A stretch of DNA of 64,000 nt, from NCBI GenBank assembly GCA_945882415.1, contig CAMCWC010000004.1:62001-126000 (forward strand), given 5' to 3'. Shown here in pieces: positions 38,306 to 52,206 of the stretch; within the stretch, counting starts at the first letter, position 1, and each line of letters opens with the position of its first letter. Both the position numbers and the translations under genes were made by a program. Below the pieces are notes generated by a model that was not told where the DNA came from, did not search any database, and saw nothing but the letters and a program-made list of their open reading frames with translations. The DNA is from Chthonomonas calidirosea. Its GTDB lineage: Bacteria; Armatimonadota; Fimbriimonadia; Fimbriimonadales; Fimbriimonadaceae.

Positions 38306-39373
38306 TTAGCCTTTCGATTTGCCCTTGGTTTTGCCCTTAGGCGGCGGAGTCTTTTTGGCCGGAGCCTTCTTGGCTGGTGCGGCCTTGGTCACGCTAAGCA
38401 AGGACATCACCGTTCGGCCCTTGAGTTTTTGCTCAACCAAGGGGTCGTTTTCTTGCTCGGTTAAGACCAGTTCAAAACCACCTTCTGATTCGGCAACTGC
38501 TCCCAATGTTCTTCCGGTCGCTGGATCGATATCGTAGGTGACCTTTGCCTTCAGCCGAAGGGGGAACCGCTTAATCCCGGTGACCTCTTCATCAACCTCG
38601 GCAAGTTGATTTAGGAACTGACTCAGGTCCGTTTCGTGATTCAGATCAGCGTCGATTCGGTACACATCCTTTGGGCCGCGCTTTGTGGTGCCCTTGAAAG
38701 TGTAGGTAATGTCGAGCCGCTGGACGGCTTGCTTGCCATCGGTGCCCTTGAGCTTCTGAGGCTGGAAACCGACGGTGCGCTTCCAGCTATCTCCGACAAC
38801 AACCTCATCGAAAGGGAACTTTGGATTGAAGTCGAGGGATGAGTCGAGCGAGCCTATGAATACGGAGAGCCGCTGGACCTCTTCGATAAACACGCCGAAA
38901 AAGTCTTGGGCACGCTTTGCGAGCGCTGACTTGGTCGCTAGGTTGAGTTTGTCGGCCGCCGCCTTTTCCTTCTTTGGCGGATTGAGATCCTTATCGGCCA
39001 AGACTTCGTTGATTGGCGACATGGTCAGCAAGTAGTTGAAATTGATCTTCTCGGTGGTCGTTTTGATGCCTGAGTCGAACGTCTCACCCTCGATCACTTT
39101 GATCGTGGGGCGTCGATAAATGACGTCGGCGATGCCGTCTGGTTTGAGCTGCTTAACTTCGGTGGTGAAGTCGTACTCCAAGCCCTCATCTTGCGGAATG
39201 AAGGTTCGCAGTTCGCCGGCGCGGACCTGAATCTGGATGTCCGCTCGCACGCGATAGGTTGACTTTTCTCCGAGGACGTACGTCCTCGTAAGCGTGACCG
39301 GTTTGGCTTGGGCTTGCTGGATCGGAAAGGCGCTCAGAAAAGCAAGCACGGCGATGGGGCTCATGCCAGACAT
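38306..39373 (-). CDS. Secreted protein of unknown function
   Basis: 355 residues with a signal peptide (about 1-23, 'QQAQA'). The body is beta-rich with strands such as 'YDFTTEVKQLKPDGIADVIY' and 'YTFKGTTKRGPKDVYRI', similar in texture to DUF6263-type proteins, and ends in a Lys/Pro/Ala/Gly tail ('KKTPPPKGKTKGKSKG') that may bind peptidoglycan or nucleic acid. No enzyme motif is seen. Confidence 0.65.
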   Translation of the reverse strand: MSGMSPIAVLAFLSAFPIQQAQAKPVTLTRTYVLGEKSTYRVRADIQIQVRAGELRTFIPQDEGLEYDFTTEVKQLKPDGIADVIYRRPTIKVIEGETFDSGIKTTTEKINFNYLLTMSPINEVLADKDLNPPKKEKAAADKLNLATKSALAKRAQDFFGVFIEEVQRLSVFIGSLDSSLDFNPKFPFDEVVVGDSWKRTVGFQPQKLKGTDGKQAVQRLDITYTFKGTTKRGPKDVYRIDADLNHETDLSQFLNQLAEVDEEVTGIKRFPLRLKAKVTYDIDPATGRTLGAVAESEGGFELVLTEQENDPLVEQKLKGRTVMSLLSVTKAAPAKKAPAKKTPPPKGKTKGKSKG

Positions 39374-39403: not shown

Positions 39404-39429
39404 AAATCTCACCGCTCGGGATGAGATTT
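39404..39429 (-). terminator. Hairpin at the end of the acyl-CoA dehydrogenase gene
   Basis: AAATCTCA/TGAGATTT, a perfect 8-bp stem with a 10-base loop, begins inside the stop codon region of the acyl-CoA dehydrogenase. The following T-run is only TTTCT, so efficiency is uncertain. Confidence 0.45.
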
Positions 39430-40540
39430 ACTTCGTGATCTGTTTGGCGATGACCATCCGCTGGATTTCTGAGCAGCCTTCGCCAATTTCGGTGAGCTTG
39501 GCGTCTCGCCAGAGCTTCTCGACAAGGAACTCGCGGGTCATGCCTCGGCCACCGTGGATCTGGACCGCTCGGTTGGTCACGCGATTTGCGGTTTCGCTAC
39601 TGTAAAGCTTCGCGATGGAGCTTTCCTTGATGATCGGAAGACCCATGTCGAAGAGCTGGGCTCCTTTCTGGAGCAACAAGCGAGCGGCTTCGACTTCGAC
39701 TTCGCTGTCAGCGAGCATGTTCTGCACGCTCTGCATATCGCAGAGCCGGCGATTGAACTGTTCGCGCTGCTTGGAGTACTCGACAGCCAGTTCGTGAGCC
39801 TTTTCAGCGATTCCGACCGCCATTCCGGCGATGCCAAGTCGACCCCGGTAGAGCAAGCCGATCGCTTCTTCGAACTTACATGGCGTGTGCCAGCCAACGG
39901 CGTTGTTTAAGCCGAACTGCACGGTGTTCGAGGCGGAAACTCCGACGGTGTGAATTCGCTTTTCGAGGGTGAATCCAGGTTGATTGGTTTCCAGGAGGAA
40001 CGCGCTGAGCTCTTTTTCGGAGGTTCGCGCGATGATCACGATGAGGTCGGCTTTGCCGCCGTTCGTGATGAACATCTTTCGCCCGGTGATGTTGTAGAAG
40101 CCGTCTCGACCTTCGATCGGCTCGGCGACGGTCTTGACTCGGCGCGCATCCGATCCGGCGTCTGGCTCGGTGAGTCCCCAAGCGACCTTCACGCGGCCGG
40201 CAGTGACGTCGGCCAAGTACTTTTCTTGCTGTTCCGGGGTGCCAAACGCTACGATGTGAGCGACGACGAGAGCATTGATGGCCGCGACGTTCATTGCCAA
40301 CGCAGGGTCGCCCTTTGCCAGTTCACGAATCGCTTCGCAATATGCGGCACAGCTGACGCCGCCTTGATCGACGGGCAGGCCCATCTTGAGCAGACCGACG
40401 GTGCCGAGCTTCTCCCAGATTTCGTCGTCGAAACCTGTTTGCTCTTCCCATTTTCGGGTGTTTGGTAGAACGTCATTCGCGACGAACTCGCGGACTCGAT
40501 CTAGAAAGGTTGATTCTTCGGGATGGATGGATAGATACAT
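39428..40540 (-). CDS. Acyl-CoA dehydrogenase
   Basis: 370 residues. FAD and substrate motifs 'AWGLTEPDAGSDARRV', 'KMFITNGGKADLIVI', 'QREQFNRRL' and the catalytic Glu354 in 'EIGEGCSEIQRMVIAKQI' match short- to medium-chain acyl-CoA dehydrogenases. It introduces the alpha-beta double bond in fatty-acid or branched-chain acyl-CoA oxidation. It is divergent from the B12-domain regulator, which may control it; the multifunctional beta-oxidation protein at 43385 would act next. Confidence 0.92.
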   Translation of the reverse strand: MYLSIHPEESTFLDRVREFVANDVLPNTRKWEEQTGFDDEIWEKLGTVGLLKMGLPVDQGGVSCAAYCEAIRELAKGDPALAMNVAAINALVVAHIVAFGTPEQQEKYLADVTAGRVKVAWGLTEPDAGSDARRVKTVAEPIEGRDGFYNITGRKMFITNGGKADLIVIIARTSEKELSAFLLETNQPGFTLEKRIHTVGVSASNTVQFGLNNAVGWHTPCKFEEAIGLLYRGRLGIAGMAVGIAEKAHELAVEYSKQREQFNRRLCDMQSVQNMLADSEVEVEAARLLLQKGAQLFDMGLPIIKESSIAKLYSSETANRVTNRAVQIHGGRGMTREFLVEKLWRDAKLTEIGEGCSEIQRMVIAKQITK

Positions 40541-40643
40541 AGCTCGCCTTTGAGAGAATCTCTCCCTGGGATTTACAGCTATTTTACCGGCATGGTTACC
40601 TTTAGACCCTCAGATTTATTCTTCAGTAATTTTTTATGACGAA

Positions 40644-40672
40644 ACATATCAGTCGCGCGTATTGTAATATGT
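40644..40672. promoter_or_regulatory. Inverted repeat, candidate operator for the B12-domain regulator
   Basis: ACATAT (40644-40649) and ATATGT (40667-40672) form an inverted repeat with a 17-base spacer, ending 10 bases before the regulator's ATG and inside the 142-base divergent region shared with the acyl-CoA dehydrogenase. AT-rich dyads of this kind suit an autoregulating repressor. Confidence 0.4.
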
Positions 40673-40682
40673 CAAGGTCAAT

Positions 40683-41636
40683 ATGATAAACGTCTATGAA
40701 GAACTCGGAGATACTTCGCGTCGCCAAATTCTGGCGGAGCTTCGAGCGGGGCATAGGAACGTCTCGGAAATTTGTGAAGCCACGGATCTGAAGCAGCCGA
40801 ATGTGAGCAACCACCTCGCACGAATGCGAGCACGCGGCATCGTTCGAGCCACCAAATCGGGCCGACAGGTCTATTACAGCCTTGCTACGCCAGAGATTGA
40901 AGCGATTGTGAACTCTGTATTCACGCAGCCTGAGTTGCGCGCAGCAGACGTGCACCTTGGCGAACTGGCCAAAGAGTACGCCCGAGCCGCGGTTCAGGGT
41001 GATGAGCAGACTTGCTCCGAGATCATGGACGCCGCATTCCGCGCGCAAGTCTCGCTGATCGAAATCTACGAGGACTTGTTGGCCCCCGCCATGACGATGG
41101 TTGGGAACTGGTGGAAGGTCGAGGCGATTGACGAGGCCCAGGAGCACATGGCCAGCGCGGTTACGGAGCGAATGTTGGCTCGAACCTCGCAGATCATGGG
41201 ACCAATGCGTCGGCACGGCCGGGTTGCCCTTCTTGGCTGCGCGCCTAACTCTTGGCACGTCATCGGACTTAGAATGATTGGTGATTACCTTCGCTTACAT
41301 GGATGGCGCACGCTATTCCTCGGTGCCAATGTGCCAGTCAAGAGCTTCATCACCACGGTGCGAAACCATCGACCGACTTTGGTTCTGTTGAGCTGTGCAG
41401 CAGAAGAGAGCGCGGCGGACACGGAAGCCTTGCTGAAAGAGCTCGTTCGCGTCCGAGACCGTCGCCAGCCTTACACGATTGGCGTAGGTGGCGCGATGGT
41501 CAATCAGGATCCGGCGCGCTTCCTATCGGCAGGAGCCGACTTTGCCGCGAAGGACCTGCGTTCGTTCGCGACGGAGCATCTGCCGAACATGGACGCCCGC
41601 AGTGCCGAGCAAGAGAACGCGGCGTCTCGGAACTAA
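40683..41636 (+). CDS. ArsR-type regulator with CarH-like B12-binding sensor
   Basis: 317 residues. Residues 5-75 are an ArsR-like winged helix ('LKQPNVSNHLARMRARGIV', 'GRQVYYSLA'). About 95-180 form the four-helix bundle of CarH/MerR-B12 regulators with the exact W-x9-EH motif (W144, E154, H155), and 180-300 form a B12-binding Rossmann domain with the probable cobalt-ligand H192 in 'NSWHVIGLRM' and 'LFLGANVP'. CarH proteins repress in the dark with adenosylcobalamin and are released by light. Here the DNA-binding part is ArsR-like rather than MerR-like. Likely target is its own operon or the divergent dehydrogenase. Confidence 0.82.
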   Translation: MINVYEELGDTSRRQILAELRAGHRNVSEICEATDLKQPNVSNHLARMRARGIVRATKSGRQVYYSLATPEIEAIVNSVFTQPELRAADVHLGELAKEYARAAVQGDEQTCSEIMDAAFRAQVSLIEIYEDLLAPAMTMVGNWWKVEAIDEAQEHMASAVTERMLARTSQIMGPMRRHGRVALLGCAPNSWHVIGLRMIGDYLRLHGWRTLFLGANVPVKSFITTVRNHRPTLVLLSCAAEESAADTEALLKELVRVRDRRQPYTIGVGGAMVNQDPARFLSAGADFAAKDLRSFATEHLPNMDARSAEQENAASRN

Positions 41637-51215: not shown

Positions 51216-51980
51216 CTATTCGAGATCGAACAGTTCGTCGGTCGAAAAGTCTCCGTCTCGGTCTAGCTCACCTAGCTGGACCGGGTTGAACTCGGACTCG
51301 TTGTAGGCACCGCCATAGCCAAAGGTTCCGCGTCGAAGCTTCGGCCGCAAGGCTGATGCGTGCCCATCGGCCCACGCCACTAACCCGGTGCTCAGATGTC
51401 GCCCGTGGAAGGTTGGGTACTCGCTGGACGGGGGCTCCAGGTAGGTATTGCCCTCAAGCTGATGCGGCAGGCCGAAGCTCATCCGCGCGGAGGTACCAAA
51501 GGCAACGGTGTCGGCAACCGATCCCACCGCGCCATAGTTCACGGGCTTTGCCACCTCGTTGTAGGTCGGCGGAACGTAATCCGTCGGGCTGAGATAGTTG
51601 TAGTTGTATCCGTAGCCAGTGAGTCCAACCGTGGTCCGCAAAGTGTCCGGGAATGCCGGGTCGGTTTGAATTCCTTTGTTCTTGGTGTACGGAAAGAGCA
51701 GCCCCTCGTTTTCTCTAAGGGTAGCTCCGTCGAAGCTGCCCCACCAGTAAAACACCTTGCCTGAAGCGGCGGAGCCGGTAGCGACGCGCATCATGGTGTC
51801 GTCGTAGTCGTTGCCGTAAAGCAACCAGGCGAGGCCGATCTGTTTCAGGTTGCTCAGCGACTGGGTCTTTTTTGCGGCGGCCTTGGCTTGGGCGAAGACG
51901 GGGAAGAGAATGGCGGCGAGAATCGCAATGATGGCGATGACGACGAGAAGCTCAATGAGAGTAAACGCTCGATTCTTCAT
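51216..51980 (-). CDS. Pseudopilin with H-X9-DG domain, riboswitch-controlled
   Basis: 254 residues from the ATG at 51980, whose GAGGT site lies six bases upstream; a GTG at 51992 would put that site inside the gene. Prepilin leader '[20 protein letters not shown]', cleavage before Phe, Glu+5. The C-terminal '[12 protein letters not shown]' is the H-X9-DG motif. Same family as the gene at 5768. A cobalamin riboswitch precedes it directly and the Shine-Dalgarno site is in a hairpin. Its job is unknown; surface display or secretion is the family expectation. Confidence 0.87.
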
Positions 51981-51986
51981 GAATAA

Positions 51987-52001
51987 CCTCACAAGGTGAG
52001 G
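51987..52001 (-). promoter_or_regulatory. Shine-Dalgarno-hiding hairpin (riboswitch output)
   Basis: On the minus strand CCTCAC-CTT-GTGAGG, a perfect 6-bp stem. Its right arm is the GTGAGGT ribosome-binding site of the pseudopilin, so formation of the stem would block translation. Confidence 0.7.
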
Positions 52002-52090: not shown

Positions 52091-52206
52091 TGCGAAGCGG
52101 GCATTCGGACTTTCGACCAAGGTCGATTTACCGTTGCGGCACAGTGCCGGAATTTCACCGGACTTTCCCCAATTTACAGATGCCCCACGACAGGGCACCC
52201 TTCGCA
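52091..52206 (-). ncRNA. Cobalamin riboswitch aptamer
   Basis: On the minus strand the closing stem P1 is TGCGAAG (52206-52200) with CTTCGCA (52097-52091). Between them are 'GGTGCCC...GGGGCATC', 'GGGGAAAGTCCGGTGAAATT', 'CCGGCACTGTGCCGCAACGG' with the B12-box core, a TCGACC/GGTCGA hairpin and 'AGTCCGAATGCCCGC'. This order matches the cobalamin riboswitch class. A downstream region to 51980 holds the expression platform. Expected action: bound cobalamin stops translation of the pseudopilin. Confidence 0.93.

What the first reader, a model, noticed from the sequence alone, without database searches (positions are those of the whole stretch)
40683..41636. CarH-type B12 photosensor joined to an ArsR-like DNA-binding domain
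The W-x9-EH motif (W144, E154, H155) and the cobalt-ligand His192 context are those of CarH photoreceptors, but the N-terminus reads as an ArsR winged helix, not MerR. CarH architecture is normally MerR-type. It is divergent from an acyl-CoA dehydrogenase, not from carotenoid genes, so the regulated process would differ from the known carotenoid case.
Basis: partly seen in the sequence, partly recalled or inferred. Interest (0 to 1): 0.68.

Follow-up and report, generated by a model that had tools for sequence, protein, structure and literature searches.

The report
ArsR-type regulator with CarH-like B12 sensor
This is a real, conserved bacterial gene switch in which a vitamin-B12 domain of the light-sensing CarH kind is joined to a DNA-binding domain of an unrelated (ArsR) family; it sits beside a fatty-acid-oxidation gene, and although its response to light is untested, it shows that the B12 light sensor has been coupled to a second kind of DNA-binding machinery.

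Summary
Window 40683-41636 (+) encodes 317 aa: an ArsR winged helix (Pfam HTH_5; topology a1-a4-b1-b2-a5; the top structural matches are ArsR repressors) followed by B12-binding_2 and B12-binding. There is no MerR domain. The cobalamin domain matches the experimentally light-responsive SasPcob, CtMerR and AbDPcob domains better than methionine synthase or methyltransferase corrinoid proteins. E154, H155 and H192 are kept in 41 of 42 relatives. The capping W144 is not: 28 have Tyr, and the window lacks the Gly of the published GxxH light signature. Light sensing is therefore likely but unproven.

Full-length orthologs occur in about 42 genomes of one family and more distantly in four other families of the phylum; dN/dS is 0.018. 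In 33 genomes it is divergent from the same acyl-CoA dehydrogenase. Relatives share a palindromic candidate operator (ATATATCA-n8-TGATATAT) over the regulator's own promoter. It is found in 16 of 33 held-out regulator loci and 0 of 20 dehydrogenase loci lacking the regulator. Known CarH operators are direct repeats.

Best reading: a cobalamin-dependent, probably green-light-released ArsR-type autorepressor, with the dehydrogenase a probable but unproven target. New variant of a known kind.

The parts
40683..41636 (+). CDS, 317 aa: ArsR-type winged helix (residues 1-82), linker with a low-confidence stretch (83-86), cobalamin-binding four-helix cap (about 92-172), Rossmann-like cobalamin-binding domain (about 180-300), C-terminal helix
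40683..40928 (+). ArsR-type DNA-binding domain; near-invariant recognition-helix region K37-Q-P-N-V-S-N-H-L45
   Evidence: Pfam HTH_5; AF2 model pLDDT 93.8; best structural matches CzrA, CadC, HlyU, SqrR; conservation
40968..41180 (+). B12-binding_2 (cap) domain, residues 96-166, with G141xxW144 and E154-H155
   Evidence: conservation
41226..41543 (+). B12-binding (Rossmann) domain, residues 182-287, with the cobalt-ligand candidate H192 (N189-S-W-H192) and G214xxxP218
   Evidence: conservation
40644..40667 (.). candidate operator palindrome ACATATCAGTCGCGCGTATTGTAA, overlapping the regulator's presumed -10 region, 39 to 16 bp before its ATG
   Evidence: motif fit; window pattern match 40646-40665; family motif cross-validated, although the window site itself was not significant when held out
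40581..40586 (-). TAAAAT, presumed -10 of the acyl-CoA dehydrogenase promoter (AGTAnAAT motif conserved in orthologs, also where the regulator is absent)
39428..40540 (-). divergent acyl-CoA dehydrogenase, 370 aa, conserved neighbour and probable target
   Evidence: Pfam and NCBIfam; adjacency in 33 genomes

Best explanation
The protein is a one-component transcriptional repressor in which an ArsR-type winged-helix dimer is controlled by a C-terminal cobalamin domain of the CarH/photocobilin kind. In the dark, adenosylcobalamin sits between the cap (W144, E154) and the Rossmann domain (H192 on the cobalt) and favours the oligomer that binds a palindromic operator over the gene's own promoter. 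Green or blue light cleaves the Co-C bond, the domain rearranges and DNA binding is lost, so the regulator and probably the divergent acyl-CoA dehydrogenase are derepressed. Shown here: the domain make-up, conservation of the cobalamin residues, the fold (predicted), the conserved neighbour, and a cross-validated palindrome found only where the regulator is. Inferred: adenosylcobalamin as ligand, the light response, the direction of regulation, and the dehydrogenase as target.
For: HTH_5 + B12-binding_2 + B12-binding. The cobalamin domain is closest by sequence to CtMerR (E 9.6e-22) and SasPcob (2.3e-18) and by structure to SasPcob, CtMerR and AbDPcob (Z 25.7, 25.2, 25.0), against MetH 21.8, monomethylamine corrinoid protein 21.2 and TtCarH 19.7. 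SasPcob, CtMerR and AbDPcob bind adenosylcobalamin and respond to green light, and CtMerR goes from tetramer to monomer although it has Arg at the TtCarH His132 position (PMC11796333). E154, H155, H192 in 41/42 and G214xxxP218 in 42/42 homologs. N-terminal fold matches ArsR repressors, CzrA Z 14.5. Palindromic motif: log-likelihood 89 against 40-53 for shuffles; 16/33 held-out loci at p<=0.05 and 12/33 at p<=0.01; 0/20 loci without the regulator. The genome encodes a PduO-type adenosyltransferase, two photolyase-family genes and one phytoene/squalene-synthase-family gene. G017 lacks a close dehydrogenase ortholog and its regulator has lost W, EH and the His ligand.
Against: The strict light signature GxxW/EH/GxxH/GxxxP is met by only 8 of 42 homologs, and the window protein itself has N189 in place of Gly. 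Tyr replaces the capping Trp in 28 of 42. The TtCarH His132 position is Lys145. No photoprotective gene is adjacent. The operator in the window was not significant when held out of training, and no close copy (up to 1 mismatch) of the core motif occurs elsewhere in the genome. The dehydrogenase link may partly be inherited gene order: a block including C2up, L20, IF3 and FadB is widely conserved, and homologs in other families of the phylum have no dehydrogenase beside them.
Confidence: 0.55

Rival explanations
1. Cobalamin-level sensor: the same ArsR-type repressor reports the amount or form of cobalamin (adenosyl, methyl, hydroxo), and light is irrelevant in the cell.
For: Strict light signature incomplete in most members; Trp to Tyr at the adenosyl cap; related corrinoid folds serve non-light roles and also match well; adenosyltransferase present.
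Against: Closest domains by sequence and structure are the light-responsive ones. No methylmalonyl-CoA mutase in the genome, so the obvious B12-beta-oxidation link is missing. No cobalamin biosynthesis or transport gene was recognised beside it.
Confidence: 0.25
2. Pure autoregulator with no role at the dehydrogenase: adjacency is inherited gene order only. (This can hold together with either sensing mode.)
For: Operator overlaps the regulator's promoter, not the dehydrogenase -10; that -10 persists in genomes without the regulator; no dehydrogenase neighbour in other families of the phylum.
Against: The pair stays together where the rest of the syntenic block is not detected (L042, L063). Loss of a close dehydrogenase ortholog coincides with decay of the cobalamin residues in G017.
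Confidence: 0.3
3. Cobalamin-binding role lost: the protein works as an apo or heme-type (SCHIC-like) sensor, or as a CarA-like B12-independent repressor.
For: AppA SCHIC matches the fold (Z 20.3); one homolog (L066) has lost the cobalamin residues.
Against: EH and the His ligand are kept in 41/42 homologs and dN/dS of the cobalamin domain is 0.010.
Confidence: 0.08

Closest known systems
CarH/LitR (MerR-type B12 photoreceptor, e.g. Thermus thermophilus CarH)
   Same: N-terminal winged-helix DNA-binding domain plus C-terminal cobalamin domain with W-x9-EH and a His cobalt ligand
   Different: DNA-binding domain is ArsR, not MerR; Lys at the His132 position; candidate operator is a palindrome rather than 11-bp direct repeats (PMC9304148); no carotenoid genes beside it
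CtMerR (Chloracidobacterium thermophilum, 8JBS/8JBT) and the photocobilins SasPcob and AbDPcob
   Same: Closest cobalamin domains by sequence and fold; also lack His132
   Different: CtMerR has a MerR-type DNA-binding domain; photocobilins carry a bilin-binding domain, which is absent here
ArsR/SmtB repressors (CzrA, SmtB, SqrR, HlyU)
   Same: Winged-helix fold and domain length; scores 74.7 bits against a cut-off of 55 for the NCBIfam ArsR/SmtB model
   Different: Only one Cys in the domain (C31, Val in 39 of 42 homologs), so no conserved Cys metal site; sensing appears to have moved to the added cobalamin domain
MerR-type CarH of the same bacterial class (L077, L076)
   Same: Same kind of cobalamin domain; 16 of 113 genomes
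   Different: MerR domain; different neighbours (fasciclin, NmrA/DUF2867 proteins, subtilase, class-III aminotransferase)

Membership tests
CarH/LitR | N-terminal MerR-type DNA-binding domain | tested here: not met
   No MerR model in the Pfam scan; helix-strand order is ArsR-type
CarH/LitR | B12-binding_2 plus B12-binding with W-x9-EH and a His cobalt ligand | tested here: met
   (window protein; capping residue is Tyr in most relatives)
CarH/LitR | NCBIfam CarH equivalog model above cut-off | tested here: not met
   47.1 bits against 400
CarH/LitR | second histidine for the bis-His light state (TtCarH His132) | tested here: not met
   Lys145; but CtMerR (Arg), SasPcob (Gln) and AbDPcob (Tyr) also lack it
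CarH/LitR | operator of 11-bp direct repeats | tested here: inconclusive
   a palindrome is the best motif found; binding itself was not tested
CarH/LitR | adenosylcobalamin binding and light-dependent DNA release | not testable with these tools
   needs purified protein
Light-responsive cobalamin-domain signature (PMC11796333) | GxxW, EH, GxxH and GxxxP all present | tested here: not met
   three of four; N189 replaces Gly of GxxH; 8 of 42 homologs meet all four
ArsR/SmtB | winged helix, Pfam HTH_5, a1-a4-b1-b2-a5 | tested here: met
ArsR/SmtB | conserved Cys metal-binding sites | tested here: not met
   residues 1-82 hold a single Cys, C31, which is Val in 39 of 42 homologs
Photocobilin | bilin-binding globin-like domain next to the cobalamin domain | tested here: not met
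   no further domain in Pfam; protein ends about 20 residues after the cobalamin domain

The most novel reading that the evidence does not exclude
A second architectural lineage of B12 photoreceptor transcription factors, in which light breaks an ArsR-type complex on a palindromic operator and controls fatty-acid oxidation instead of carotenoids.
Probability: 0.3. Interest if true: 0.75.

Novelty: new variant of a known kind. Interest (0 to 1): 0.52.

Why it matters
CarH is the established B12 photoreceptor transcription factor and works by tetramer break-up on direct repeats through MerR domains. An ArsR-linked version would show that the same light-breakable domain can drive a different DNA-binding fold and operator logic, would move the regulated process from carotenoids towards fatty-acid oxidation, and would offer a new green-light switch. 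It also shows that the published sequence signature would miss most members (34 of 42 here).

Tried and rejected
Reading the N-terminus as MerR: rejected. Methylmalonyl-CoA mutase as the link between B12 and beta-oxidation: the family is absent from the genome. A genome-wide regulon: no match to the core palindrome with up to 1 mismatch. The motif AGTAGAAT and the word GACGAAACAT were considered as operators: the first is the dehydrogenase -10, kept without the regulator; the second is shared by few loci. Mutual exclusion with MerR-type CarH: suggestive only (4 of 16 overlap; Fisher p 0.17 in the class, 0.053 in the family). Plasmids: no record covers 80% of the protein, and the listed matches cover either the cobalamin domain or the ArsR domain. 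Full-text searches found no paper on an ArsR-cobalamin-domain photoreceptor; this library lacks most subscription papers and preprints.

Full report
Observation. The ORF 40683-41636 (+) encodes 317 residues. Pfam finds HTH_5 (11-55, E 1.4e-11), B12-binding_2 (96-166, 5.2e-15) and B12-binding (182-287, 2.1e-18), all above cut-off, and no MerR model. NCBIfam gives the ArsR/SmtB model 74.7 bits (cut-off 55) and the CarH equivalog 47.1 bits (cut-off 400), the latter over the cobalamin domain only. A shadow ORF on the other strand (40623-41258) has no family match.

Fold. AlphaFold2 with 34 homologs gives mean pLDDT 92.9 with a weak linker at 83-86. The N-terminal domain alone (pLDDT 93.8) has the order a1-a2-a3-a4-b1-b2-a5, and its best solved matches are ArsR-family repressors: CzrA Z 14.5, CadC 13.7, HlyU 13.7, SqrR 13.6, SmtB 12.9. 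The cobalamin domain matches SasPcob 25.7, CtMerR 25.2 and AbDPcob 25.0, then methionine synthase 21.8, monomethylamine corrinoid protein 21.2, AppA SCHIC 20.3 and TtCarH 19.7. Sequence search ranks CtMerR first (E 9.6e-22).

Cobalamin residues. In 42 family sequences E154, H155 and H192 are each kept in 41, and G214 and P218 in all. The cap residue 144 is W in 11, Y in 28, F in 2 and A in 1. The published light signature GxxW/EH/GxxH/GxxxP (PMC11796333) is met in full by 8; the window protein fails at GxxH because residue 189 is Asn. The paper reports a main-chain contact for that Gly, so Asn need not abolish binding (inference). The TtCarH His132 position is Lys145; CtMerR, SasPcob and AbDPcob also lack His there, and CtMerR still goes from tetramer to monomer in light. 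The residues therefore argue for cobalamin binding strongly and for light sensing moderately.

Distribution and selection. 113 genomes of the class were searched; full-length homologs occur in one family, and homologs with HTH_5 plus both cobalamin domains occur in other families of the phylum. The near-identical copy in a pond metagenome genome gives dN/dS 0.018; in the DNA-binding domain there are 26 synonymous and 0 non-synonymous changes. MerR-type CarH exists in 16 of the 113 genomes, with other neighbours; 4 genomes have both.

Neighbourhood. The divergent acyl-CoA dehydrogenase lies within 300 bp of the regulator in 33 genomes (G057 from its contig coordinates). Much of this is a conserved block that also holds C2up (an uncharacterised protein, window 38306-39373), ribosomal protein L20, IF-3 and a FadB-like protein, with ETF subunits further on in several. 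In L042 and L063 the pair is kept while the rest of the block is not detected nearby. In G017 no dehydrogenase ortholog is found at E 1e-100, C2up lies next to the regulator, and the regulator has lost W, EH and the His ligand: a single but pointed case. Twenty dehydrogenase loci without an adjacent regulator were read, most in genomes that lack it; most keep the gene order without it.

Operator. Palindromic motif discovery on upstream regions gave ATATATCA-n8-TGATATAT. In six-fold cross-validation on 33 clusters, 16 held-out loci reach p<=0.05 and 12 p<=0.01 against shuffles; the full fit scores 89 against 40-53 for shuffled sets. The same model scores 0 of 20 dehydrogenase loci lacking an adjacent regulator and 2 of 9 loci from other families at p<=0.05. 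Part of the motif resembles promoter elements, so the promoter may contribute to it. In the window the fitted site is 40644-40667, just upstream of the regulator's start; it was not significant when held out. The dehydrogenase -10 (40581-40586) lies roughly 60-80 bp away. The plain reading is autorepression, with the effect on the dehydrogenase open. Known CarH operators are 11-bp direct repeats bound by tetramers (PMC9304148); a palindrome fits an ArsR dimer.

Physiology. The genome has a PduO-type adenosyltransferase, two photolyase-family genes and one phytoene/squalene-synthase-family gene, and no methylmalonyl-CoA mutase. This is compatible with a light-exposed organism that makes adenosylcobalamin.

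Conclusion. A cobalamin-domain regulator of the CarH/photocobilin kind with an ArsR DNA-binding domain is real, conserved and, as far as the searched library shows, undescribed as such (one survey, PMC11796333, mentions HTH fusions of light-responsive cobalamin domains without naming the type). Light control is the likeliest function but is inferred.

Noticed in passing
52091-52180 (-): Rfam AdoCbl-II riboswitch at the gathering threshold (37.3 against 36.5 bits), about 100 bp upstream of a pseudopilin-like ORF (51216-51992, -), an unusual target; may be spurious.
   Followed up: partly
L075:5672-6583 (-): In genome G007 a CarH-like cobalamin domain is followed by a C-terminal XRE/Cro-type HTH (HTH_3), another DNA-binding partner for this domain.
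   Followed up: partly
L066:6179-7186 (-): Homolog in G017 that keeps the ArsR domain but has lost W, EH and the His ligand, reminiscent of CarA beside CarH; no close dehydrogenase ortholog was found in that genome.
   Followed up: partly
L074:5743-6900 (+): Cobalamin-domain protein with about 165 N-terminal residues that match no Pfam family.
   Followed up: no
window 1-64000, pattern ATATCA-n8-TGATAT with up to 3 mismatches: Only 2 matches in 64 kb against 7.45 expected from shuffles, suggesting the motif may be avoided outside the regulator promoter.
   Followed up: no
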